Positions 301 to 26,322 of a stretch of 64,000 nucleotides of DNA are shown piece by piece. Under the pieces are notes generated by a model. That model did no database searches. It was not told where the DNA came from and saw nothing but the letters and a program-made list of their open reading frames with translations. The number at the start of each line of letters is the position of its first letter. Positions within the stretch are counted from its first letter, which is position 1. A program made the translations under genes and the position numbers. The stretch is from a virus, in the IMG/VR virus record IMGVR_UViG_3300017917_001573, positions 1-64,000 of that record; one strand, written 5' to 3'.

Positions 301-340
301 AAAGAATAGCACACTATGAAAATAGTGTGCTATATTCTTT
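301..340 (-). terminator. Hairpin at the end of the 143-aa minus-strand gene
   Basis: A 12-bp perfect stem (306-317 with 322-333) around a 4-nt loop lies directly after the TAA stop of the minus-strand gene at 339-341, and partly pairs onward with flanking A- and T-rich bases. The T-run on the minus strand is weak, so termination efficiency is uncertain. The position fits a transcription end. Confidence 0.55.
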
Positions 341-770
341 ACTTCTGAGTAGCTACCAGATTTGTATCTACACAAGCCCAATAAACCTTGGAACCTGTGG
401 AAGTCATCATGTATTTGCCGTCGCCATCAGGTTTAGAGCTTCTAACTTGAAACTCAATTGTTTGTCCCTCTGTAAGTTCAACATTGGACGACACCAATTT
501 AACGGGTTTTTGTTGTCCGTCAAACTCAACAAGTCCACAAGCCTTTTCAGTGGTAACTGCAAAAGTAGTTCCATCAGTTCGGGTTTTTACCTCACCCTTA
601 ACCGATTTTCCCATACCGAGGAATCGACCTTTGTAGATTTTCACCTCAATTCCATCAGATGTGGTATGTTGCGAAATTGGTTCACCCAATTCCGCAACAC
701 GTGCAAAAGGTGCTTCCAATAAACCAAAGGGTTGAAATGTTTTTGCTTCAATTTTTGCTTCACCAGCCAT
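339..770 (-). CDS. Hypothetical protein, 143 aa
   Basis: The minus-strand frame starts MAGEAKIEAKTFQPFGLLEA and encodes a soluble protein of mixed beta-type composition with several Gly and Lys residues (GRFLGMGKSVKGEVK) and no membrane or signal segment. It ends at TAA followed at once by a strong hairpin. An overlapping plus-strand frame exists but looks non-biological, being rich in Ser, Phe and Cys. The gene points away from the structural genes, as expected for the other half of a crAss-like genome, where replication functions lie. A single-strand DNA-binding or nucleic-acid role is only a guess from context. No motif establishes it. Confidence 0.75.
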   Translation of the reverse strand: MAGEAKIEAKTFQPFGLLEAPFARVAELGEPISQHTTSDGIEVKIYKGRFLGMGKSVKGEVKTRTDGTTFAVTTEKACGLVEFDGQQKPVKLVSSNVELTEGQTIEFQVRSSKPDGDGKYMMTSTGSKVYWACVDTNLVATQK

Positions 771-865
771 TTTAATAAAATTTTAAGTTAAACGAAATTT
801 AGCTAAACAAAGAGTCCAATACATTCTTTTTAGAAAATTTCTTTTCTGAATAAGTATGTAGGGGA

Positions 866-900
866 ACCCCAGGTCAGCTATTTGCTGCGGGGTGTTTTTA
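866..900 (+). terminator. GC-rich hairpin followed by a T-run
   Basis: ACCCC (866-870) pairs with GGGGT (889-893), and CAGC (875-878) pairs inside it with GCTG (884-887). The stem is followed by GTTTTTA. It has the form of a plus-strand intrinsic terminator, but no plus-strand gene is seen upstream. It might end antisense transcription into the minus-strand genes or be part of their leader. Confidence 0.4.
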
Positions 901-1023
901 TGTGGGGTCCTCCCATCACACGTCATTACACAAAAAAATTTTTAGAAAAAAAAATTTAAAAAACATCCTTAACTCCCACCTCTCAATACCCACCTTTTTA
1001 ACTCAACCCTACTAACTCAAACC

Positions 1024-1041
1024 TATATACTTAAGTATATA
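1024..1041. repeat. 18-bp perfect palindrome
   Basis: TATATACTTAAGTATATA reads the same on both strands. It sits in the most AT-rich part of the divergent intergenic region. It could be an operator or an origin element. No protein can be assigned to it. Confidence 0.35.
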
Positions 1042-1198
1042 TTACTATACTGAGTAAATATTTATAACCTATTGAGTCATAGTTTTTTACAAGGAAGCAA
1101 AATGAACTTTTTGTACTTTTTAACCCTGTTTTATACTAAAAAGTACGATACAGTGAACTTTTTTATTTTCCCATACTAAAAAATATTTTTTAAAAATA

Positions 1199-1229
1199 GT
1201 TGCATACTAAGAAACCTTTCGTATATTTG
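1199..1229 (+). promoter_or_regulatory. Bacteroidota-type promoter for a candidate small RNA
   Basis: TTG at 1200-1202 and TATATTTG at 1222-1229 are separated by 19 bp, matching the Bacteroidota primary sigma pattern TTTG / 19-21 bp / TAnnTTTG. Transcription would start near 1236. The spacer contains CATACTAA, also present in the promoter at 1796-1827. Confidence 0.7.
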
Positions 1230-1235
1230 TAAGGC

Positions 1236-1355
1236 AATCTATTGCACAGTTCAATGAGTTCCTGGTTACTTCATTTAAAATTATTAACCAGTGTTTTTTA
1301 AAAGAGACTTAATTACGTTAAGTAATCTGTCTAAGAGGGGAAACCCTCTTTTTTT
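1236..1355 (+). ncRNA. Candidate small RNA of about 120 nt
   Basis: A complete transcription unit without a credible gene: a promoter at 1199-1229 and a terminator at 1333-1355. The predicted RNA folds into successive stems at or near its 5' end: 1234-1238/1241-1245, 1262-1268/1285-1291 (CTGGTTA with TAACCAG) and 1307-1312/1318-1323, before the terminator stem. The longest internal frame is about 15 codons. It resembles no RNA family I can name, and its role is unknown. Confidence 0.5.
1333..1355 (+). terminator. Intrinsic terminator with GAAA loop
   Basis: AAGAGGG (1333-1339), loop GAAA, CCCTCTT (1344-1350), followed by a T-run to 1355. It ends the candidate small RNA starting near 1236. 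Confidence 0.8.
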
Positions 1356-1371
1356 AAAAAATAAAAAAATG

Positions 1372-1402
1372 TTGTGTATAACAAAAAAGATGTGTATCTT
1401 TG
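1372..1402 (+). promoter_or_regulatory. Bacteroidota-type promoter for the structured RNA region
   Basis: TTG at 1372-1374 and TATCTTTG at 1395-1402, separated by 20 bp. The predicted start, about 1408, falls exactly at the left edge of the long inverted repeat that begins at 1409. Confidence 0.65.
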
Positions 1403-1408
1403 GTGCAA

Positions 1409-1740
1409 CTCTGACAGGTTAAACAACATAAAAAAAAATATTAAGGACAACCCCTTAGTTTTAGTAGTATGTTGTTTAACTTAGTCAGAGGTTAAAATAA
1501 GATTCTCCTAAAAAACTAAGGGGTATTTTATTTTACGGTGTAGGAGAATCACTGGTAAAATAAACATCTGAACTTGTATACTACAATATACTTGGATCGG
1601 GTAAAATAAATCCCTTGTAGATAGCATTAGATTTTCTGATTTTTTAGTGACTGTAATGACCCCAACTAATACACTAATACAACGGTACAACTTACCACAT
1701 AGAGCTTGGTAAACTCAATTTTAAAATCAGCAAGGGGTCG
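1409..1740 (+). ncRNA. Candidate structured RNA with long stems and loop-loop complementarity
   Basis: Stem A joins 1409-1430 to 1468-1490 (about 20 pairs, one irregularity). Stem C joins 1501-1510 to 1541-1550 (10 pairs, perfect). The loop of A contains 1450-1462, which is perfectly complementary over 13 nt to 1512-1524 in the loop of C, so the two hairpins could form a kissing complex or switch partners. 1527-1536 can instead pair with 1555-1564, a sequence repeated at 1601-1610. Further on, 1636-1643 pairs with 1723-1730 and 1658-1663 with 1734-1739, crossing like a pseudoknot. A promoter ends just before the first stem. The 3' end is undefined; a weak T-rich stretch lies at 1774-1786. No known RNA family is recognised. 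An origin of replication is an alternative. Confidence 0.55.
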
Positions 1741-1795
1741 AAATTTCAAAAATCTACCATAAGTTATAGCTCAATTTATTTTTTAGTATACAAGA

Positions 1796-1827
1796 TTTGT
1801 AGCATACTAAAAAAACGTGTATATTTG
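1796..1827 (+). promoter_or_regulatory. Promoter of the Acb2/Tad1-like gene
   Basis: TTTG at 1796-1799 and TATATTTG at 1820-1827 with a 20-bp spacer, a full match to the Bacteroidota consensus. The start ATG follows at 1846, leaving a leader of only about 12 nt. Confidence 0.8.
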
Positions 1828-1845
1828 TATTCTAAATAATTCAAT

Positions 1846-2073
1846 ATGGAAGAACTAACATATGGACAAAAAGCTGTAGGAATTAAATTTAATCCTGGAC
1901 AGCTAAGTGAAGTAGATGTATGTAAACAACGATTTGCAGATCTAATTGATATGATGAATGATCTCAGGAATACTACAAAATCAATAGAAACAAAACGACT
2001 ATGTAGTATTGCAATTACAGAATTACAAGGATCACAAATGTGGGCAGTAAAAGCTATAACTTGGAAAGATTAA
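1846..2073 (+). CDS. Acb2/Tad1 hairpin-domain-like protein, putative anti-CBASS or anti-Thoeris sponge
   Basis: A 75-aa protein beginning MEELTYGQKAVGIKFNPG, with a helical middle (CKQRFADLIDMMNDLRN) and the ending SIAITELQGSQMWAVKAITW. The conserved blocks KAVGIKFNP and AITELQ-x-x-QMWAVKA-x-TW match what I know of the small phage family annotated as Acb2/Tad1 hairpin domain. Characterised members of that group bind cyclic nucleotides made by CBASS or Thoeris systems and so shield the phage. Length is right for a stand-alone domain. It is alone between its own promoter (1796-1827) and a strong terminator (2100-2124), fitting early, separately regulated expression. The family match is by memory of motifs; sponge activity here is inference. 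Confidence 0.65.
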   Translation: MEELTYGQKAVGIKFNPGQLSEVDVCKQRFADLIDMMNDLRNTTKSIETKRLCSIAITELQGSQMWAVKAITWKD

Positions 2074-2099
2074 AAAAATAGTTTGATAAGGTTTAGGTA

Positions 2100-2124
2100 A
2101 GAGGTGTTTATCACCTCTTTTTTA
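2100..2124 (+). terminator. Intrinsic terminator after the Acb2-like gene
   Basis: AGAGGTG (2100-2106), loop TTTAT, CACCTCT (2112-2118), then a run of T. It insulates the Acb2-like gene from the next unit. Confidence 0.85.
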
Positions 2125-4350: not shown

Positions 4351-4709
4351 TTGAATATGATGTGATCAACAAAATGACTTCTTGTAGAGTTGGTAAAGAC
4401 GTTGATGAGGTTAAGTTTATTATGAACACTTACTGGAACAACATCCAAAAGGTTTTGTCTAGTGGTGATGCATCTGTAATAAACATTCCTAATTTTGGGA
4501 AATTTAAAATTGCATACAGCCAATTACACAAAGAATTTGCAAAGAAGAAACGAGTTGCAGAACAATCTATTGTAGTATACAATGACCATCCTAGTGAATA
4601 CAACAAAAATAAGATGGAAACTTGTATTGCTGCATACGAAGAAATTCTAAAACGATTTGTAGAAAAGTATGATGTAGAATATATTCAAAATGAAAAAAAG
4701 AAAGATTAA
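4347..4709 (+). CDS. HU/IHF-related DNA-binding protein candidate
   Basis: 120 aa. The central segment VINIPNFGKFKIAYSQ matches the F-G-x-F core of HU/IHF-type DNA-bending proteins, preceded by a helical N-terminal half (DEVKFIMNTYWNNIQKVL) as in that fold. The C-terminal half is basic and helical, replacing the usual DNA-binding arm. crAss-like phages are known to carry IHF-like subunits near this part of the genome, which supports the reading. It overlaps the genes on both sides. Alternative: an unrelated small structural accessory protein. Confidence 0.5.
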   Translation: MIEYDVINKMTSCRVGKDVDEVKFIMNTYWNNIQKVLSSGDASVINIPNFGKFKIAYSQLHKEFAKKKRVAEQSIVVYNDHPSEYNKNKMETCIAAYEEILKRFVEKYDVEYIQNEKKKD

Positions 4710-6363: not shown

Positions 6364-6749
6364 TGGAAAAAAGAAATATAAATACAGTAGTAAATATGTT
6401 CTTGTCAGAACTATTTGCATTTAGAAATGATGTTCATTTGGCACATTTGAATGTACATGGACCAGCTGCACATGCTGCACATATTGCGTTAAACGAATTG
6501 TATGATGCAATTTTAGAGTTTGCTGATGAATTAGTAGAAACCTATCAAGGACAATATGGGTTGTGTGATTTAACTATTCGGTCATCTAATACTTTAGTAT
6601 GTAAAGATCCATGTCAAGTAGTAGAAAAAATTATTCAATTTGTAAATACAAATAGAGCATGTTTTATAGATAGTCACCTACAAAACATTGTGGATGAACT
6701 AATTGCTTCTGTATACAAAGTATATTATAAACTAGAAAACTTGAAATAA
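6363..6749 (+). CDS. Dps/ferritin-like protein
   Basis: 128 aa, all-helical. The N-terminal helix reads FLSELFAFRNDVHLAHLNVH, followed by GPAAHAAHIALNELYDAI and LEFADELVETY, resembling the Dps pattern with an H-x-x-H-x-N-x-x-G turn and helix B acidic positions (E, D, E). Such ferritin-like proteins are frequent in large phages of Bacteroidota and in some T4-like phages. Iron binding or DNA protection is possible, but a purely structural role cannot be excluded. It is coupled to TerL through a shared TAATG overlap at 6747-6751. Confidence 0.6.
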   Translation: MEKRNINTVVNMFLSELFAFRNDVHLAHLNVHGPAAHAAHIALNELYDAILEFADELVETYQGQYGLCDLTIRSSNTLVCKDPCQVVEKIIQFVNTNRACFIDSHLQNIVDELIASVYKVYYKLENLK

Positions 6750-9700
6750 TGCAAATTTGGAGTGGATATGACCCAATAGATGATTGTGATCTACATTTAC
6801 TTAAACAGTATAAAGATGTAGATTATACTCCTGGGAAATATAAATGGTCTAAAACTAAAGAATTTTCTGTAGTAGGTAGAAGGTTTCAACTTACTGGAAA
6901 ATACTGTGATTATATGGAAGGTTCTCCTGCCTATGATGAATTCTGGGATATGGAAGAATATAAAATTAAGCATGGTATGATTAATAGTGATGGGCATTAT
7001 ATATGTGGTCCAATGTACTCCTATTTGAACTATGGTATCATTTATGATAAGAAACAAAAGAAATCTATTCAACCTGATTTTTGGGATTCTGATGCATACT
7101 TCTGGATAGAAGATTTAAAATCTGAAGTAAGAGGTGTGATGCTAGGTGGTACAAAAGCTCGCCAAAGAGGATATTCTCTAAAAGGAGCGCATAAAGTTAT
7201 TTTAAAATTTTATCACGTACCAAACTCCATTTCTTATGTTGGTGCATATATTGATGATAAAGCATCTAAGTTTTGGGAAATGGTTGAAGCAAATGCTAGA
7301 CATTTAGATTTAAATACTCCGTGGCATAAAAATAAAACCCCGTCTACAAAAGAATTTTGGAAAGCTCAAGTACAAGTAACTGAAGATACTGGTAAAAAAG
7401 TATTTAAAGGTTATATGTCTGAGTTTCATAAGGTTACATTTAAACAAAGCCCATCAAGTGGGGTAGGTGGGGCGTGTCATGGAAAAGACACCAAAATTGT
7501 TATGTCTGATGGGACATTAAAAAATGTACAAGATATAAAAGTAGGAGAATATGTAATTGGCGAAGATGGTAAACCTAAAAAAGTTTTAAATTTATTTTCT
7601 GGGCAAAAAGAATTGTTTTTAGTAGAACAAATAAAAGGTCAATCTTTTACAGCAACAGGTGATCATTTATTGTATTTAAAAAACAGAGATGTAAAAACTT
7701 CAGATGATTTTTTTACAGTACAAGTAAAAGATTGGAATAATTTATCCGATTGGAAAAAAACGGTTTACGTTCAAGTAAAAAATAGAACAGTTATACCATT
7801 TTGTAATATTGATCCAACAATTGATCCTTATTATTTAGGGTTATGGTTAGGTGATGGATTTAGAGATTCAATGCGCATTATTGTAAATAAAACAAAAGAC
7901 ATTGAAATATTCAATTACATCAAATCCTTTTTAGGTGATTATTCTTTGTATACAAGAAAAGAGGTAAATCGTTACAATGACGAAATGTATATAATGGGTA
8001 GTAAAATATCTATTGATCGTGAAGACACGCCTCTGTTAAAAGAATTTATAAAGTATAATTTGTTTTATAATAAACACATTCCTAAAGAAGTATTTAGTGC
8101 TTCTCCAGAATATAGATTAAACGTATTAGCGGGACTAATTGATTCTGATGGATATTTAAATAGTGTCAACTCATATGAAATATCCTGTAAAAGCGAGGAA
8201 TTGGCTAAACAAATTAAACTATTAGCTGGTGGATTAGGAGCATATGGTAATATATCAAAAAGAAGAAACAAATCTGGAATGTCTTCTCCAGATAGCATTT
8301 CACATGTTGTAAGATTTTATTTTACAGAACAAATAGTACCATGTTTATTGCCTAGAAAAGTAAACACATACAAAAAAGTAAAAGACACATCATCATCACC
8401 TATAAAAAGTATTACATCAATTGGAGTAGATAATTATTATGGTATTGAAGTAGAGGATCATTTGTATTTCTTAGAAGATTATACACTGACTCACAATTGT
8501 GACATGTTTGTATACGAGGAACCTGGTTTATCACCTACTTTAATGCAAACAATCAAGTATCTAGAACCCGCAATGTCAGATGGTGATTATAGAACTGGTC
8601 ACTTATGGGCATTGGGTTCAGTAGGGGAATTAAAAGATTCTAAAGACTTAGAAAAAATTGTACGTTCACCTAAAGACTATGGTTTTGCAGAATTTCCAAA
8701 TAATTTTGATCCTAAGAAATCAAATCCACCTTGCGGTTGGTTTCACCCTGCATCATGGTCCTATAAAGGGTATATTGATGAAGAAGGTAATTCTGATGTA
8801 GAAGGTGCAACAAAACGTATTTTTGAGAAACGTGATAAAGCAATTAGACAATCACCTAAAGATTATATTCTTGCAATTACACAAGATCCATTGACTGTTG
8901 ATGAAGCATTCCAAGCAAGGGATGTAAATAAATTTCCTGTTAAACTTATTTCTAAACGTTTAGCAGAATTAGAAGAATCTGGATTTAGAGGAACCTATGT
9001 CGATTTACAATTTGGTAAAGACGGTATTGAATGGGAATTAAGTGAAGACTATCCTGTTACAGATTTTCCTGTAAAAGAACATTCATACAAAAAAGGTTGT
9101 ATAGAAATATTTGAGTTTCCAGATATAACATTATCATTTGGTACATATGTTGCAGGACTTGACCCTTATAAGTTTGATGAATCAAAATATTCAGATTCTA
9201 TTGGATCTATTTATATATACAAAAGGACAGTAACATTAGAAGGTTCTTATCAAGATAGAGTTGTAGCATGTTATCATGGTAGACCAGATAACTTGGATAT
9301 ATTCTATGATAATATTGAAAAACTTGTAAAATTCTACAATGCACAAGTATTGATAGAAAATGATGTCAATGATATTATCCGACATTTCCTACAAAAAAAC
9401 CTACACAAATACTTAGCTAAAACACCAGGTTGGATTAAAGATGTAGCAAGTAATACATCTGTAAATACAGAATATGGTATTCGAGCTACTGTAAAAAATA
9501 TTGAACACTTTGAAAATTCTATTATCAAATATTGTATAGATGAGATTGGATCTCGTTTTTCAGAAGATGGAAAAGTGTCTGTACCTATTTATGGTGTAGA
9601 AAGAATTGATGACAAAATGCTATTGATAGAATTATTGGCTTATACTAAAAATGGTGGTAACTATGATAGGATACGTTCTTTTGGAATTACTTTAGCATTT

Positions 9701-9835
9701 GCTAATGGTATGGACCGTGTGTATACCAAAGGTGATGAAGCACCTGACTATAGTTATATGGCAGAAAGAGTAAAACACAAAGGTCCATTTGCTGCTAGTT
9801 CACATTCAACAATTCGTAAAAGACCTAGACGATGA
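6749..9835 (+). CDS. terL: Terminase large subunit interrupted by an intein
   Basis: 1028 aa, of which residues 243-583 are an intein; the spliced protein would be 687 aa, normal for a crAss-like TerL. It is the ATPase-nuclease motor that packages DNA through the portal. The N-terminal ATPase half has a degenerate Walker A (GTKARQRGYS near residue 135). After splicing, the Walker B strand reads GGACDMFVYEEPG. The nuclease half shows AGLDPYKF with SDSIG (near 803-820), VLIENDVNDII (near 870) and RIDDKM near the end, as expected for the three acidic clusters of the RNase H-like domain. The gene overlaps the portal gene by 4 bp. Confidence 0.95.
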   Translation: MQIWSGYDPIDDCDLHLLKQYKDVDYTPGKYKWSKTKEFSVVGRRFQLTGKYCDYMEGSPAYDEFWDMEEYKIKHGMINSDGHYICGPMYSYLNYGIIYDKKQKKSIQPDFWDSDAYFWIEDLKSEVRGVMLGGTKARQRGYSLKGAHKVILKFYHVPNSISYVGAYIDDKASKFWEMVEANARHLDLNTPWHKNKTPSTKEFWKAQVQVTEDTGKKVFKGYMSEFHKVTFKQSPSSGVGGACHGKDTKIVMSDGTLKNVQDIKVGEYVIGEDGKPKKVLNLFSGQKELFLVEQIKGQSFTATGDHLLYLKNRDVKTSDDFFTVQVKDWNNLSDWKKTVYVQVKNRTVIPFCNIDPTIDPYYLGLWLGDGFRDSMRIIVNKTKDIEIFNYIKSFLGDYSLYTRKEVNRYNDEMYIMGSKISIDREDTPLLKEFIKYNLFYNKHIPKEVFSASPEYRLNVLAGLIDSDGYLNSVNSYEISCKSEELAKQIKLLAGGLGAYGNISKRRNKSGMSSPDSISHVVRFYFTEQIVPCLLPRKVNTYKKVKDTSSSPIKSITSIGVDNYYGIEVEDHLYFLEDYTLTHNCDMFVYEEPGLSPTLMQTIKYLEPAMSDGDYRTGHLWALGSVGELKDSKDLEKIVRSPKDYGFAEFPNNFDPKKSNPPCGWFHPASWSYKGYIDEEGNSDVEGATKRIFEKRDKAIRQSPKDYILAITQDPLTVDEAFQARDVNKFPVKLISKRLAELEESGFRGTYVDLQFGKDGIEWELSEDYPVTDFPVKEHSYKKGCIEIFEFPDITLSFGTYVAGLDPYKFDESKYSDSIGSIYIYKRTVTLEGSYQDRVVACYHGRPDNLDIFYDNIEKLVKFYNAQVLIENDVNDIIRHFLQKNLHKYLAKTPGWIKDVASNTSVNTEYGIRATVKNIEHFENSIIKYCIDEIGSRFSEDGKVSVPIYGVERIDDKMLLIELLAYTKNGGNYDRIRSFGITLAFANGMDRVYTKGDEAPDYSYMAERVKHKGPFAASSHSTIRKRPRR
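7475..8497 (+). mobile_element. Class 1 intein with LAGLIDADG homing endonuclease inside TerL
   Basis: 341 residues in frame. Splicing block A starts at Cys243 (CHGKDTKIVMSDGT), block B is TATGDHLLYL with the conserved T-x-x-H, and block G ends LTHN followed by Cys584 as the first C-extein residue. The centre carries both LAGLIDADG helices: YYLGLWLGDG near 361-370 and LAGLIDSDGYL near 460-470, so the endonuclease looks intact. Excision joins GGA to CDMFVYEE. The element can move into intein-free alleles of terL by cutting them. Confidence 0.95.
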
Positions 9836-12501
9836 TTATAGAAAATATAAAAGATTCTAAAGCATACGTAACCTATTTGGATAACTTTAGGTTGTATGTA
9901 CCAGATCAATTTGTACCAGATAAAGTTAAAAGAAGTCCTGACTGGATTAAAACAGCAATGGACTATTATTATACAATTGCTTTATCACAATGGAAAACAA
10001 ATACAAAACTTAAAAAACCTTACGAATTATTGGAAGGTAATTTAACAATGGAAGATTACTATTCAGCAGACTTACAACAAGCTGTTGATTTTATGTCTTC
10101 TGCAAATGTACAATTACCAGATTATATTAAACACTACCCTATTGTTAATCCACCAATCAATACTCTTTTAGGAGAAGTTAATGATCGACCAGATAACAAT
10201 AGATTTATTGCTATTGATTCATATACTAGAACAGCTTCTGTAGAAGAACAGAATGAATTTCTACAATCTAAAGTAGAAGAGTATGTGAACAATGTGATGA
10301 TGTTAAAAGCTCAAAAAGCAGGATTGCTTCAACAAAAACAACAACTTGCTGAACAAATTCAAGAATTGCAGCAAACTGAAGATCCAAATGCACAACAACA
10401 ATTAGAGCAATTAAATCAACAAATCCAACAAATTGATCAAGAAATTCAAGGATTTACACCAGAATGGTTTAAGTATGACAAATCTTCTAGTACACAACAC
10501 ATACTACAGGAATGGTCAAATCTTAAATTAGAACAACTTAAATTAATGTTTCAAATTCCTCACAAGAATACAGAAGCATTGAAAGACCTTTTGGCAGTAG
10601 CCAGAGAATTTCATCACGTATATATTGATAATGAATCACATGCTGGACTAGGATATGAAATTCTAAACCCTAGAAAAGTATGGTTTTTGTCAGAACCAGA
10701 TCCTATTTTAACAAACGATTGTTATGCAATTGGATATTTGGATTATTGGGAAATATCAAAAATCATTTCTAGATTTAAATTATCAGAAGAAGAAATTGAT
10801 CATTTAAAAGCTCATAAACACGATTATATGGGTTTACCAACAGGTGATAAAAACGTGTGGGAAACTACTGAAAAATCTTGGGCATCTATGTCTTTACCTC
10901 AACACGATCCATCTAAAACTTTGCAAGAAGCTGTATGGAGAAGTGAATTTGAACAAGACAATATTTTATCTACATACAAAGAAGAGTCTGGAGATTATGC
11001 TCCATCTGGTTATCATGGGCATGATAGCAGAATGTACAAATACTCTGTATGTATTGCATACTTTAAATCTAAAAGAAAAGTTGGAAAACTTACCTATACA
11101 AATGAAGATGGTGAGTTAGAAACTATTGTAGTATCAGATGATGTTAAATTGCCAGATACTACCTATACTATTGAATGGGAATGGAAAAACGTTTGGTACA
11201 GAGGTGTTCGTATTGGAGTAGGCATATACTTTATGGAACCATTGTATTATACAGATCTTCCTCCAATTATGGGAGTATTCCAAAAGAATAAAAATGCACT
11301 ACCTACTTCTACAGTAGATAAAATGAAAGTATATCAGATTATCTACAATATTTGTATGAACCAAATCTATTTGCTACTAGAAAAAGAGATTGGTAAAGTT
11401 CTTTTGTATAACATGAGGCATTTACCTAAATACAAAGATTTCCAAGATTCAGAAGCATTGGATATGTTTATTGATATTGCAAAAGGAGAAGGTATTATTG
11501 GATTAGATGATTCACCTGAGAATGTAAAAGGGGCTTCTACATTTAATCAATTTACAGCAATAGATTTAACTCGTACACAAGAAATTAAATCTCGTATTGA
11601 GTTGGCTACATGGTGTAAGTATGCATGTTGGGAATTGTTAGGATTTACCCAACAACGTTTGGGTTCAACTACTGCTACAGAAACTGCAACTGGTGTTGAA
11701 GCAGGTATTACACAATCATATGCTCAAACAGAACCTCTTATTGCATTACATGAACAATGTATGATGAAGGTGTATCAATTGTTGATTGATACTGCACAAT
11801 TTGTAGAAGCTGATAAACCAGACGCATCTATTCATTTTGTAAATAGTGAGCAACAAGAAATTATGTTTAGAATAAATGGTTCTAAACTTAAGTTGGCAGA
11901 TTTTGCTATTTTCCCATCTGATAGAAGAAAAGACAAACGTAGATTAGATGAACTTCGTCAAAGAAGTTTGGAATTTGCACAAAATAATCTACACCCATAC
12001 TACATTTCTGTAATTAACAGATCAGAAAGTGTACATGAGATTGAAAAAGTTCTTAAACAAGATTATGAACAAAAGCTTCAACAAGAAGCTCAAATGCAAC
12101 AAATTGAGCAACAAAAGCAACAACAACTTCAAGAAATTGAACAACAGCGTTTCCAATTACAACAACAACTCGTTAAAGAAGAACAAGCCTTTAAAGCTAA
12201 AGAAAATGCATTGGATCGTAAGAAGGACATTATGATTGCACAAATCAATGCATTGAAATTTGCTAAAGACAATGATGTGAATACTAACAATGTTCCTGAT
12301 GCATTGGAAATTGAGAAGTTTAATGCTGAGTATGCACGATCAATGCAAGAACTTAATCAACAAAAAACAAATGCATTAAATGACTACAATGTAAAACTTA
12401 AAGAACTAGATTTGAAAGAAGAAGAAATTAGATCTAAAGAACGCATTGCTAAAGACAAAAATAAAACAATGTTGAAAAACAAAGTAGCTGGAGAGAAGTA
12501 A
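9832..12501 (+). CDS. Portal protein
   Basis: 889 aa, directly after TerL with an ATGA overlap, the standard place for the dodecameric portal through which DNA enters and leaves the head. Length fits the large crAss-like portals. Two Gln-rich coiled-coil stretches are seen, one around residues 155-205 (LLQQKQQLAEQIQELQQ) and one around 730-800, followed by a long charged helical tail. The central part contains the acidic and aromatic segments usual in portals, such as YEILNPRKVWFLSEPDP. Identification rests on position, size and overall pattern. A strong terminator lies on its stop codon. Confidence 0.85.
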   Translation: MIIENIKDSKAYVTYLDNFRLYVPDQFVPDKVKRSPDWIKTAMDYYYTIALSQWKTNTKLKKPYELLEGNLTMEDYYSADLQQAVDFMSSANVQLPDYIKHYPIVNPPINTLLGEVNDRPDNNRFIAIDSYTRTASVEEQNEFLQSKVEEYVNNVMMLKAQKAGLLQQKQQLAEQIQELQQTEDPNAQQQLEQLNQQIQQIDQEIQGFTPEWFKYDKSSSTQHILQEWSNLKLEQLKLMFQIPHKNTEALKDLLAVAREFHHVYIDNESHAGLGYEILNPRKVWFLSEPDPILTNDCYAIGYLDYWEISKIISRFKLSEEEIDHLKAHKHDYMGLPTGDKNVWETTEKSWASMSLPQHDPSKTLQEAVWRSEFEQDNILSTYKEESGDYAPSGYHGHDSRMYKYSVCIAYFKSKRKVGKLTYTNEDGELETIVVSDDVKLPDTTYTIEWEWKNVWYRGVRIGVGIYFMEPLYYTDLPPIMGVFQKNKNALPTSTVDKMKVYQIIYNICMNQIYLLLEKEIGKVLLYNMRHLPKYKDFQDSEALDMFIDIAKGEGIIGLDDSPENVKGASTFNQFTAIDLTRTQEIKSRIELATWCKYACWELLGFTQQRLGSTTATETATGVEAGITQSYAQTEPLIALHEQCMMKVYQLLIDTAQFVEADKPDASIHFVNSEQQEIMFRINGSKLKLADFAIFPSDRRKDKRRLDELRQRSLEFAQNNLHPYYISVINRSESVHEIEKVLKQDYEQKLQQEAQMQQIEQQKQQQLQEIEQQRFQLQQQLVKEEQAFKAKENALDRKKDIMIAQINALKFAKDNDVNTNNVPDALEIEKFNAEYARSMQELNQQKTNALNDYNVKLKELDLKEEEIRSKERIAKDKNKTMLKNKVAGEK

Positions 12502-13722: not shown

Positions 13723-15327
13723 ATGGCTAATTATCTTCCTGGTACAGGTAAATCTAGGTTTGTTGTACAAGAACATAGTTCTATGCACCGTGACGCACTT
13801 GGTAAATTGACTTCATCTAATCACTTGAGTCAATTGTACAAAGATCGTCCAGCAGAATATGATCGTAAGATTATCACTTTGTTCGCACAAACCGCACTAT
13901 ATTCAAATGATTTCTTGAATCTTTTGAATGCATCAGACACATTCTTCATTGGTGGTAACACTGAAACTGTAGAATATGCAATTGATGTAAAAACCGAGCT
14001 TCCTAAAATTGTCGAAAACCTTGCAGTAGGTATTGCTAAACCAGGTGCTGGTGGTGGTACTATTGAATTGGTATTTGATAAAAAAGAATTCGTAAAAGGT
14101 GATCGTCTTACTGCAAACCGTCGTCAAATGGACGTACAGTTGTATGTAACAAAAGATCCTATTCCATCTGGTAAAAACTGGCGTTATACATTCACCGCAA
14201 TTGGTGGACAAACTGCATCATCTTTTGTAAACCCACAATTCTTGCGTGTTGGTACAGAGTATATGAAACTCGACAACATTACAGGTGAAAATACCGTAGA
14301 TCTTTCTGGTCTTAGCTCAACTGCAAGTAAGTTGAAATTGGTATTCACACTTTGTGAAGGATTTGGTGTTGAACACACTGTAACAGAATCTGCTAACTTC
14401 CGTGAAGTTACTAAACCTAATGGTGAAAAATATACACTTCGTTTGACTGAACGTAACAACATGGTTCAAGATTTGACTATGATTGCTAAACGTAATGTAG
14501 GTCAAGACGGACGTGAAATTACAGTCGATGTACGTTGGGCTAAAACAGTAGACGTTTTGATGCAGAAAGAAATGCTTGACATGCGTGTTAAGAAACTTAT
14601 CTGGGGACGTTCTGGTTCAGTTAAAGATGAAAACAACAACTTGATTCCAGTTGGTGCTGGTTTGTATCAACAAATGAAAGAAGGTAACTACCATACTTTT
14701 AATCGTGGTGAGTTTTCATTGAATATTATCCGTCGTCGTCTATCTGACTTGTACTACAATCGTGTACCAATGGCTGATCGTAAAACCCTTATTTGGACTA
14801 ACGAAGCAGGTCTTGAATTGGTAAACAACGAATTGCGTAAAGAGGCAGGTAAAATTACTTGGACTACTCTTCGTACAGAAACAGGTGCTGGTGTTATTAA
14901 AAACGTAGAAGGTGGTATGCATGGTTATCCTGCAATGGGTATCGGTTATACTTTCAACGAATTTATGACTACTGATGCAGGTCTTGTACAATTCAAACAC
15001 ATGCCAGCTCTTGATGATCCTATCACTAACTCTGAATATGGTGAGAACCAAAAAGCTCCAGCAGTATTCATGATTTTTGATATTTCAAATTCTACTACTG
15101 GTATGCCAACTGGTGTTCGTCTAGTACGTTCAAAAGGAATGCCTTCAATGACTTGGGGTTATATTAACGGTACCAGCCACTACTTGGGACACGCTGCTTC
15201 TCAAGGTATGGAATCTGCTAATATGATGCCTGGTTACAAAGCTTGGATGAAAGACCGTGTAGGTGTATTCTTGGAAGACCCTACTCGTTGTATGATCATC
15301 GAAGAAATTCCAGCATTTGGATTCTAA
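13723..15327 (+). CDS. Major capsid protein
   Basis: 534 aa, beginning MANYLPGTGKSRFVVQEHSS. The body is rich in beta strands and Gly, as expected of an HK97-fold shell protein, with segments such as TVDVRWAKTVDVLMQKEMLD and a C-terminal part with many aromatic and Gly residues. It shows codon use unlike its neighbours: CGT, GGT, GCT, AAC and TTC codons are common, the usual sign of very strong expression. It follows the scaffold gene by 43 bp and is followed by a strong terminator, both expected of the most abundant virion protein. Confidence 0.85.
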   Translation: MANYLPGTGKSRFVVQEHSSMHRDALGKLTSSNHLSQLYKDRPAEYDRKIITLFAQTALYSNDFLNLLNASDTFFIGGNTETVEYAIDVKTELPKIVENLAVGIAKPGAGGGTIELVFDKKEFVKGDRLTANRRQMDVQLYVTKDPIPSGKNWRYTFTAIGGQTASSFVNPQFLRVGTEYMKLDNITGENTVDLSGLSSTASKLKLVFTLCEGFGVEHTVTESANFREVTKPNGEKYTLRLTERNNMVQDLTMIAKRNVGQDGREITVDVRWAKTVDVLMQKEMLDMRVKKLIWGRSGSVKDENNNLIPVGAGLYQQMKEGNYHTFNRGEFSLNIIRRRLSDLYYNRVPMADRKTLIWTNEAGLELVNNELRKEAGKITWTTLRTETGAGVIKNVEGGMHGYPAMGIGYTFNEFMTTDAGLVQFKHMPALDDPITNSEYGENQKAPAVFMIFDISNSTTGMPTGVRLVRSKGMPSMTWGYINGTSHYLGHAASQGMESANMMPGYKAWMKDRVGVFLEDPTRCMIIEEIPAFGF

Positions 15328-26290: not shown

Positions 26291-26322
26291 TTTGTATACT
26301 ACAAATCAATCAATTATATTTG
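26291..26322 (+). promoter_or_regulatory. Promoter of the metallophosphoesterase gene
   Basis: TTTG at 26291-26294, 20 bp, TATATTTG at 26315-26322: a full match to the Bacteroidota consensus. It starts within the T-run of the preceding terminator, so the end of one unit and the start of the next are fused. Confidence 0.8.

What the first reader, a model, noticed from the sequence alone, without database searches (positions are those of the whole stretch)
1409..1740. Structured, apparently transcribed RNA region with two long hairpins and a 13-nt perfect kissing-loop complementarity
Stem A (1409-1430 with 1468-1490) and stem C (1501-1510 with 1541-1550) each carry in their loops one half of a 13-nt perfect complement (1450-1462 with 1512-1524). 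1527-1536 pairs with 1555-1564, whose sequence recurs at 1601-1610, offering alternative partners. Downstream, 1636-1643/1723-1730 and 1658-1663/1734-1739 cross as a pseudoknot. A promoter of the host type ends at 1402, so the RNA would begin exactly at stem A. There is no gene inside. This is far more pairing than an AT-rich spacer would give by chance, and could be a regulatory RNA, a host-factor decoy, or an origin primer. I recognise no family.
Basis: partly seen in the sequence, partly recalled or inferred. Interest (0 to 1): 0.8.

Follow-up and report, generated by a model that had tools for sequence, protein, structure and literature searches.

The report
Phage RNA with chained pseudoknots
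In the control region of a crAss-like phage, a host-type promoter starts an RNA whose first ~158 bases contain four helices, each interlocked with the next, a pattern far beyond chance; no relative has been found, so it is a good candidate for an unknown phage RNA whose job still has to be tested.

Summary
The core observation holds. In 1403-1570 the only perfect helices of 9 bp or more are four: a (1418-1430/1468-1480, growing to 22 bp at 1409-1430/1468-1490), b (1450-1462/1512-1524), c (1501-1510/1541-1550) and d (1527-1536/1555-1564). They form an exact crossing chain a-b-a'-c-b'-d-c'-d': kissing hairpins plus an H-type pseudoknot. None of 3000 shuffles gave a chain of three, and none occurs elsewhere in this genome or in about 1.8 Mb from 18 relatives. 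Hairpin a alone has z = -8.9. The promoter at 1372-1402 predicts a start at 1407, two bases before hairpin a, and the + strand folds better than the - strand. The downstream pseudoknot (1636-1739) is not convincing. The spacer (771-1845) lies between divergent gene blocks, at the GC-skew minimum, upstream of an acb2-like anti-CBASS gene. No Rfam family, DNA match, structural homolog or close relative was found, so covariation could not be tested. Best reading: a host-polymerase-made, compact, 5'-terminal structured RNA acting as RNA, either on its own or as the head of a longer leader. A regulatory or stabilising acb2 leader, an origin transcript and a DNA-level element remain possible.

The parts
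1372..1402 (+). Bacteroidota sigma-A type promoter P2 (TTG ... TATCTTTG, -7 box 1395-1402); predicted transcription start 1407
   Evidence: Pattern scan; box at -12 to -5 in flavobacteria (PMC9723704); 4 of the genome's 11 + strand GTATnTTTG boxes lie in 1221-2158. Transcription itself not shown.
1409..1490 (+). Hairpin a: 22 bp (1409-1430/1468-1490, one G-U, bulged A1483), 37-nt loop
   Evidence: MFE -34.4 kcal/mol, z -8.9
1450..1462 (+). 5' strand of kissing helix b, in loop a
   Evidence: 13-nt perfect complement of 1512-1524
1512..1524 (+). 3' strand of kissing helix b, in loop c
   Evidence: duplex -18.3 kcal/mol
1501..1550 (+). Hairpin c: 10 bp (1501-1510/1541-1550), 30-nt loop holding b' and d
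   Evidence: Perfect helix; competes with the alternative 1493-1534 hairpin in pseudoknot-free folding
1527..1564 (+). Helix d: 1527-1536 (loop c) with 1555-1564, an H-type pseudoknot with c; alternative partner 1601-1610
1636..1739 (+). Proposed downstream pseudoknot (1636-1643/1723-1730, 1658-1663/1734-1739); doubtful
   Evidence: Complements exist, but region z -1.0 and 4/500 shuffles match
1200..1350 (+). Promoter P1 (1200-1229) and intrinsic terminator (1333-1350): a separate short predicted transcript just upstream
   Evidence: its body has no fold signal (z -0.29)
1797..1827 (+). Promoter P3 of the acb2-like gene, predicted start 1832, with dyad TTTTTTAGTAT/ATACTAAAAAA at 1779-1814
1846..2073 (+). 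acb2-like anti-CBASS gene (75 aa), first gene downstream
   Evidence: Pfam PF24729 Acb2_Tad1_hairpin, E 1.5e-9
2099..2119 (+). Intrinsic terminator, the first good one downstream of the structured RNA
   Evidence: no convincing terminator 1560-1830
771..1845 (.). Divergent spacer between - strand (replication/nucleotide) and + strand gene blocks, at the GC-skew minimum

Best explanation
The region makes an RNA from a host-type promoter. It starts at about 1407, two bases before hairpin a. Its first ~158 nt fold into one compact domain: hairpin a and hairpin c kiss through helix b, and the rest of loop c pairs downstream as helix d. The domain acts as RNA, most likely as a non-coding RNA or 5' cap-like domain that is hard for nucleases to attack and presents a defined surface to a host or phage protein during infection. 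Shown: the complementarities, their crossing order, their improbability, and the promoter-like sequence placed exactly at the stem. Inferred: transcription, simultaneous formation of all four helices, and any function. The trans-acting step is a commitment from position: the domain lies about 280 nt from the next gene, which has its own promoter.
For: Four and only four helices >=9 bp, in perfect crossing order; 0 of 3000 shuffles with a chain of three; none elsewhere in the genome or in about 1.8 Mb of relatives. The helices use separate strands (none shared), as expected if they form together. z -6.1 for the domain. Predicted start 1407 against stem start 1409. The + strand RNA is more stable (-53.0, z -6.1) than the - strand (-41.6, z -4.5). 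No ORF inside. Own promoter for acb2 in between.
Against: No homolog, so no covariation. Without pseudoknots the kissing helix loses to local hairpins and is only about isoenergetic with them. No terminator or 3' end is visible, so it may be only the head of the acb2 mRNA. No RNA-seq. Helix d and the alternatives are AT-rich.
Confidence: 0.42

Rival explanations
1. It is the 5' leader of the acb2 mRNA and works in cis: it stabilises the transcript against 5'-end-dependent decay, or switches between alternative folds to tune read-through into acb2.
For: No convincing terminator between 1560 and 1830, first strong one after acb2 at 2099-2119. Paired start of the RNA. Alternative, nearly isoenergetic folds exist, one with a weak terminator-like GGGG/U-rich end at 1520-1534.
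Against: acb2 has its own promoter only 14 nt upstream of its start codon by prediction. The structured part is ~280 nt from the gene. Separate rather than shared strands are unlike a switch. 80 other acb2 loci have no matching upstream RNA.
Confidence: 0.25
2. It is an origin transcript or replication primer: the RNA folds, stays on the template as an R-loop and primes replication at the GC-skew minimum.
For: Divergent spacer, GC-skew minimum at the contig start, AT-rich palindromes 1024-1041 and 1177-1192 and repeats in the same spacer.
Against: The skew also simply follows gene direction. No - strand host-type promoter in the spacer for a ColE1-like antisense RNA. No G-run/C-run pairing or primer processing site identified. 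No replication data.
Confidence: 0.13
3. The inverted repeats act at the DNA level (protein-binding dyads or cruciform at an origin or packaging site) and the RNA is incidental.
For: The spacer also has dyads over promoters; an unrelated acb2 locus (L152) shows chained inverted repeats that are really dyads of divergent promoters. Long inverted repeats occur at many origins (own knowledge).
Against: Crossing order has no DNA-level reason; helix a starts two bases after the predicted start; + strand RNA is favoured by a G-U pair.
Confidence: 0.12
4. No function: a chance or mutational product (for example template switching that makes inverted repeats) in an AT-rich spacer.
For: Single genome, no relatives, AT-rich sequence; the downstream half is unremarkable.
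Against: Shuffle and genome-wide controls; four helices of unrelated sequence would need four separate events.
Confidence: 0.08

Closest known systems
Kissing-hairpin / H-type pseudoknot RNAs as a structural class
   Same: Order a b a' c b' c' is a kissing-hairpin pair, and c d c' d' an H-type pseudoknot
   Different: Chained four-helix version with a 13-bp kissing helix; no sequence or family match
ColE1-type RNA II origin preprimer
   Same: Promoter followed at once by strong hairpins in a putative origin region
   Different: No antisense promoter found, no demonstrated R-loop or primer site
5'-terminal stabilising leaders (ompA, T4 gene 32; own knowledge)
   Same: Stable stem within two bases of the predicted 5' end
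   Different: Much larger pseudoknotted domain; next gene has its own promoter
Large ornate phage RNAs (GOLLD, ROOL; PMC12286853)
   Same: Non-coding phage-linked RNA with kissing loops
   Different: Far smaller and no Rfam match
6S-type RNA polymerase decoys
   Same: One long hairpin with a large internal loop
   Different: No Rfam 6S or Bacteroidales-1 match; separate second hairpin and kissing helix

Membership tests
Any Rfam 15 family | Covariance-model score above gathering threshold | tested here: not met
   0 matches in the window; best sub-threshold match 19.9 bits against a cut-off of 48, E 0.94
ColE1-type RNA II primer system | Antisense RNA promoter on the opposite strand inside the preprimer | tested here: not met
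   No - strand host-type promoter in 771-1850; a phage polymerase promoter cannot be excluded
ColE1-type RNA II primer system | RNA-DNA hybrid and primer processing at the origin | not testable with these tools
   Needs replication and R-loop mapping
Kissing-hairpin RNA (structural class) | Two hairpins whose loops are perfectly complementary | tested here: met
   a, b, c exact; 0/3000 shuffles reach a chain of three
Kissing-hairpin RNA (structural class) | Loop-loop helix forms in the RNA | not testable with these tools
   Energy roughly equal to the non-kissing fold; needs probing
tRNA / tmRNA | Recognisable tRNA or tmRNA fold | tested here: not met
   ARAGORN found none
Conserved structured phage RNA | Compensatory changes among relatives | tested here: inconclusive
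   No relative with the sequence found; single-sequence model gives no credible homolog in 23 genomes or 80 acb2 loci

The most novel reading that the evidence does not exclude
A new class of compact phage RNA, built as a chain of interlocked pseudoknots and made by host polymerase from the control region, acting in trans on a host defence or gene-expression factor beside the anti-CBASS gene.
Probability: 0.18. Interest if true: 0.82.

Novelty: new variant of a known kind. Interest (0 to 1): 0.55.

Why it matters
Searches of the held library turned up no described structured non-coding RNA in crAss-like phages (the library is incomplete). A strongly non-random RNA domain at a host-type promoter in the control region gives a specific, cheap target for RNA-seq, probing and mutagenesis, and its place next to an anti-CBASS gene makes an infection role worth testing.

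Tried and rejected
Relatives by protein: PhoH-like, the 339-770(-) protein, MCP and TerL gave no close kin in viral contigs, and MCP none in genome contigs; MCP/TerL relatives are 23-35% identical. Exact DNA patterns of the kissing pair, stem A and the b' segment: no hit. BLAST against phages and plasmids: none for the RNA. Covariance model from the single sequence: weak matches in csAssE-Sib and phi14:2 lie inside coding genes with broken pairs and were rejected as chance. Chain search with helices >=8 bp gave a few hits in relatives; those inspected (DAC15, W08, W09) were a terminator hairpin or lay in likely coding sequence and were rejected; one in L034 was not inspected. L152, a chain upstream of an acb2 gene, looked like a homolog but is a pair of divergent promoters with dyads. 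RNA1-RNA2 and - strand leader-RNA2 pairing: not above shuffles. A per-window z-scan of relatives timed out.

Full report
What the window is. The window is bases 1-64000 of a 94,971-base virus record. It has crAss-like organisation: + strand structural genes (terminase 6749-9835, portal 9832-12501, major capsid 13723-15327) and a - strand block at 64-95 kb with ribonucleotide reductase, helicase and ligase genes. Capsid and terminase are only about 23-35% identical to the nearest relatives found, so it is a distant member. The two blocks diverge from the spacer 771-1845, the only ORF-free gap of 450 bases or more in this genome, at the GC-skew minimum. Skew also follows gene direction, so this does not by itself show an origin.

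Check of the observation. All four core complementarities are at the stated places. Folded as RNA, 1403-1570 gives -53.0 kcal/mol, z = -6.1, with none of 200 shuffles as good; hairpin a alone has z = -8.9. Among 6324 windows of 120 nt on both strands, the 150 most stable were scored and the one holding hairpin a ranks second by z. The strongest result is topological: the only perfect helices of 9 bp or more in 1403-1570 are a, b, c and d, and they cross strictly in order, a b a' c b' d c' d'. In 3000 dinucleotide shuffles no chain longer than two occurred and none had three helices of 10 bp or more. In 1.89 Mb of this genome and relatives, no other chain of three such helices exists. The helices differ in sequence, so one duplicated repeat does not explain them.

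Limits of the observation. Without pseudoknots, loop a prefers a local 7-bp hairpin and the c segment prefers 1493-1508/1519-1534. Adding the pieces, the kissing state (a -24.8, c -12.1, kiss -18.3) and the local state (-34.4 and -17.0) are about equal before any pseudoknot penalty. The sequence allows the chain; it does not prove that it forms. The downstream half is weak: z -1.0 for 1565-1745, and 4 of 500 shuffles show an equal pseudoknot.

Transcription. Four promoters of the Bacteroidota sigma-A type (TTG ... GTATnTTTG) lie on the + strand at 1200-1229, 1372-1402, 1797-1827 and 2125-2158; 4 of the 11 + strand GTATnTTTG boxes of the genome are in this short stretch. In flavobacteria the TAnnTTTG box sits at -12 to -5 (PMC9723704), and in Bacteroides the elements are at -7 and -33 (PMC7366714). 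This predicts a start at 1407, two bases before the first pair of hairpin a. The + strand RNA also folds better than the - strand (-53.0 against -41.6 kcal/mol). These two points favour an RNA role over a DNA role. The upstream promoter has its own terminator at 1333-1350. After the structured RNA no convincing terminator appears before 2099-2119, behind the acb2-like gene, so the RNA may run into acb2, which also has its own promoter.

Relatives. Rfam gives nothing. Protein, pattern and BLAST searches of viral, phage, plasmid and genome collections found no sequence carrying the RNA. A covariance model from the single sequence found nothing credible in 23 crAss-like or related records or in 80 loci around acb2 homologs. 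The tools state that records very near the window may be left out, so absence here is not absence in nature. Covariation, the test that would settle the matter, could not be run.

What it most likely is. I commit to a host-polymerase-made RNA whose 5' domain folds as interlocked pseudoknots and works as RNA (0.42). The choice of a stand-alone or trans-acting role over an acb2 leader (0.25) rests on the ~280-nt distance to acb2 and acb2's own promoter, and is inference. An origin transcript (0.13), a DNA-level element (0.12) and no function (0.08) remain.

Novelty and interest. The architecture is made of known elements, kissing hairpins and an H-type pseudoknot, in a combination without a known family, so I file it as a new variant of a known kind. 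It is a well-defined orphan with exact predictions (5' end 1407, protected loops), but with no comparative or experimental support yet.

Noticed in passing
1846-2073 (+): acb2-like anti-CBASS gene (PF24729); 221 relatives in viral contigs and 71% DNA identity to a gene of Pasteurella phage Pmp11, so it appears to move widely.
   Followed up: partly
1200-1350 (+): A second predicted short transcript: host-type promoter 1200-1229 and strong terminator 1333-1350, no ORF of 80 aa or more, no fold signal.
   Followed up: partly
6749-9835 (+): The terminase large subunit carries an intein-like insertion at about residues 233-590; the related phage cr118_1 has one at a different place.
   Followed up: no
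1574-1586, 4570-4582 (-), 26292-26304: Operator-like 13-mer TTGTATACTACAA at three places, one overlapping a promoter; also a dyad TTTTTTAGTAT/ATACTAAAAAA at 1779-1814 over the acb2 promoter.
   Followed up: partly
L014 about 890-903 and 1805-1822: Leptolyngbya phage Lbo-JY46, the best capsid relative in the phage collection, carries Bacteroidota-type promoter boxes (TATCTTTG), so its real host may be a Bacteroidota in the cyanobacterial culture.
   Followed up: no
G000 68401-68520 (-): The strongest hairpin by z-score in the genome among the windows scored (z -7.8), in the - strand gene block.
   Followed up: no
960-1030: A G-poor, C-rich stretch with near-repeats (CTTAACTCCCACCT, CTCAATACCCACCT) next to an 18-nt perfect palindrome at 1024-1041, possibly origin-related.
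   Followed up: no
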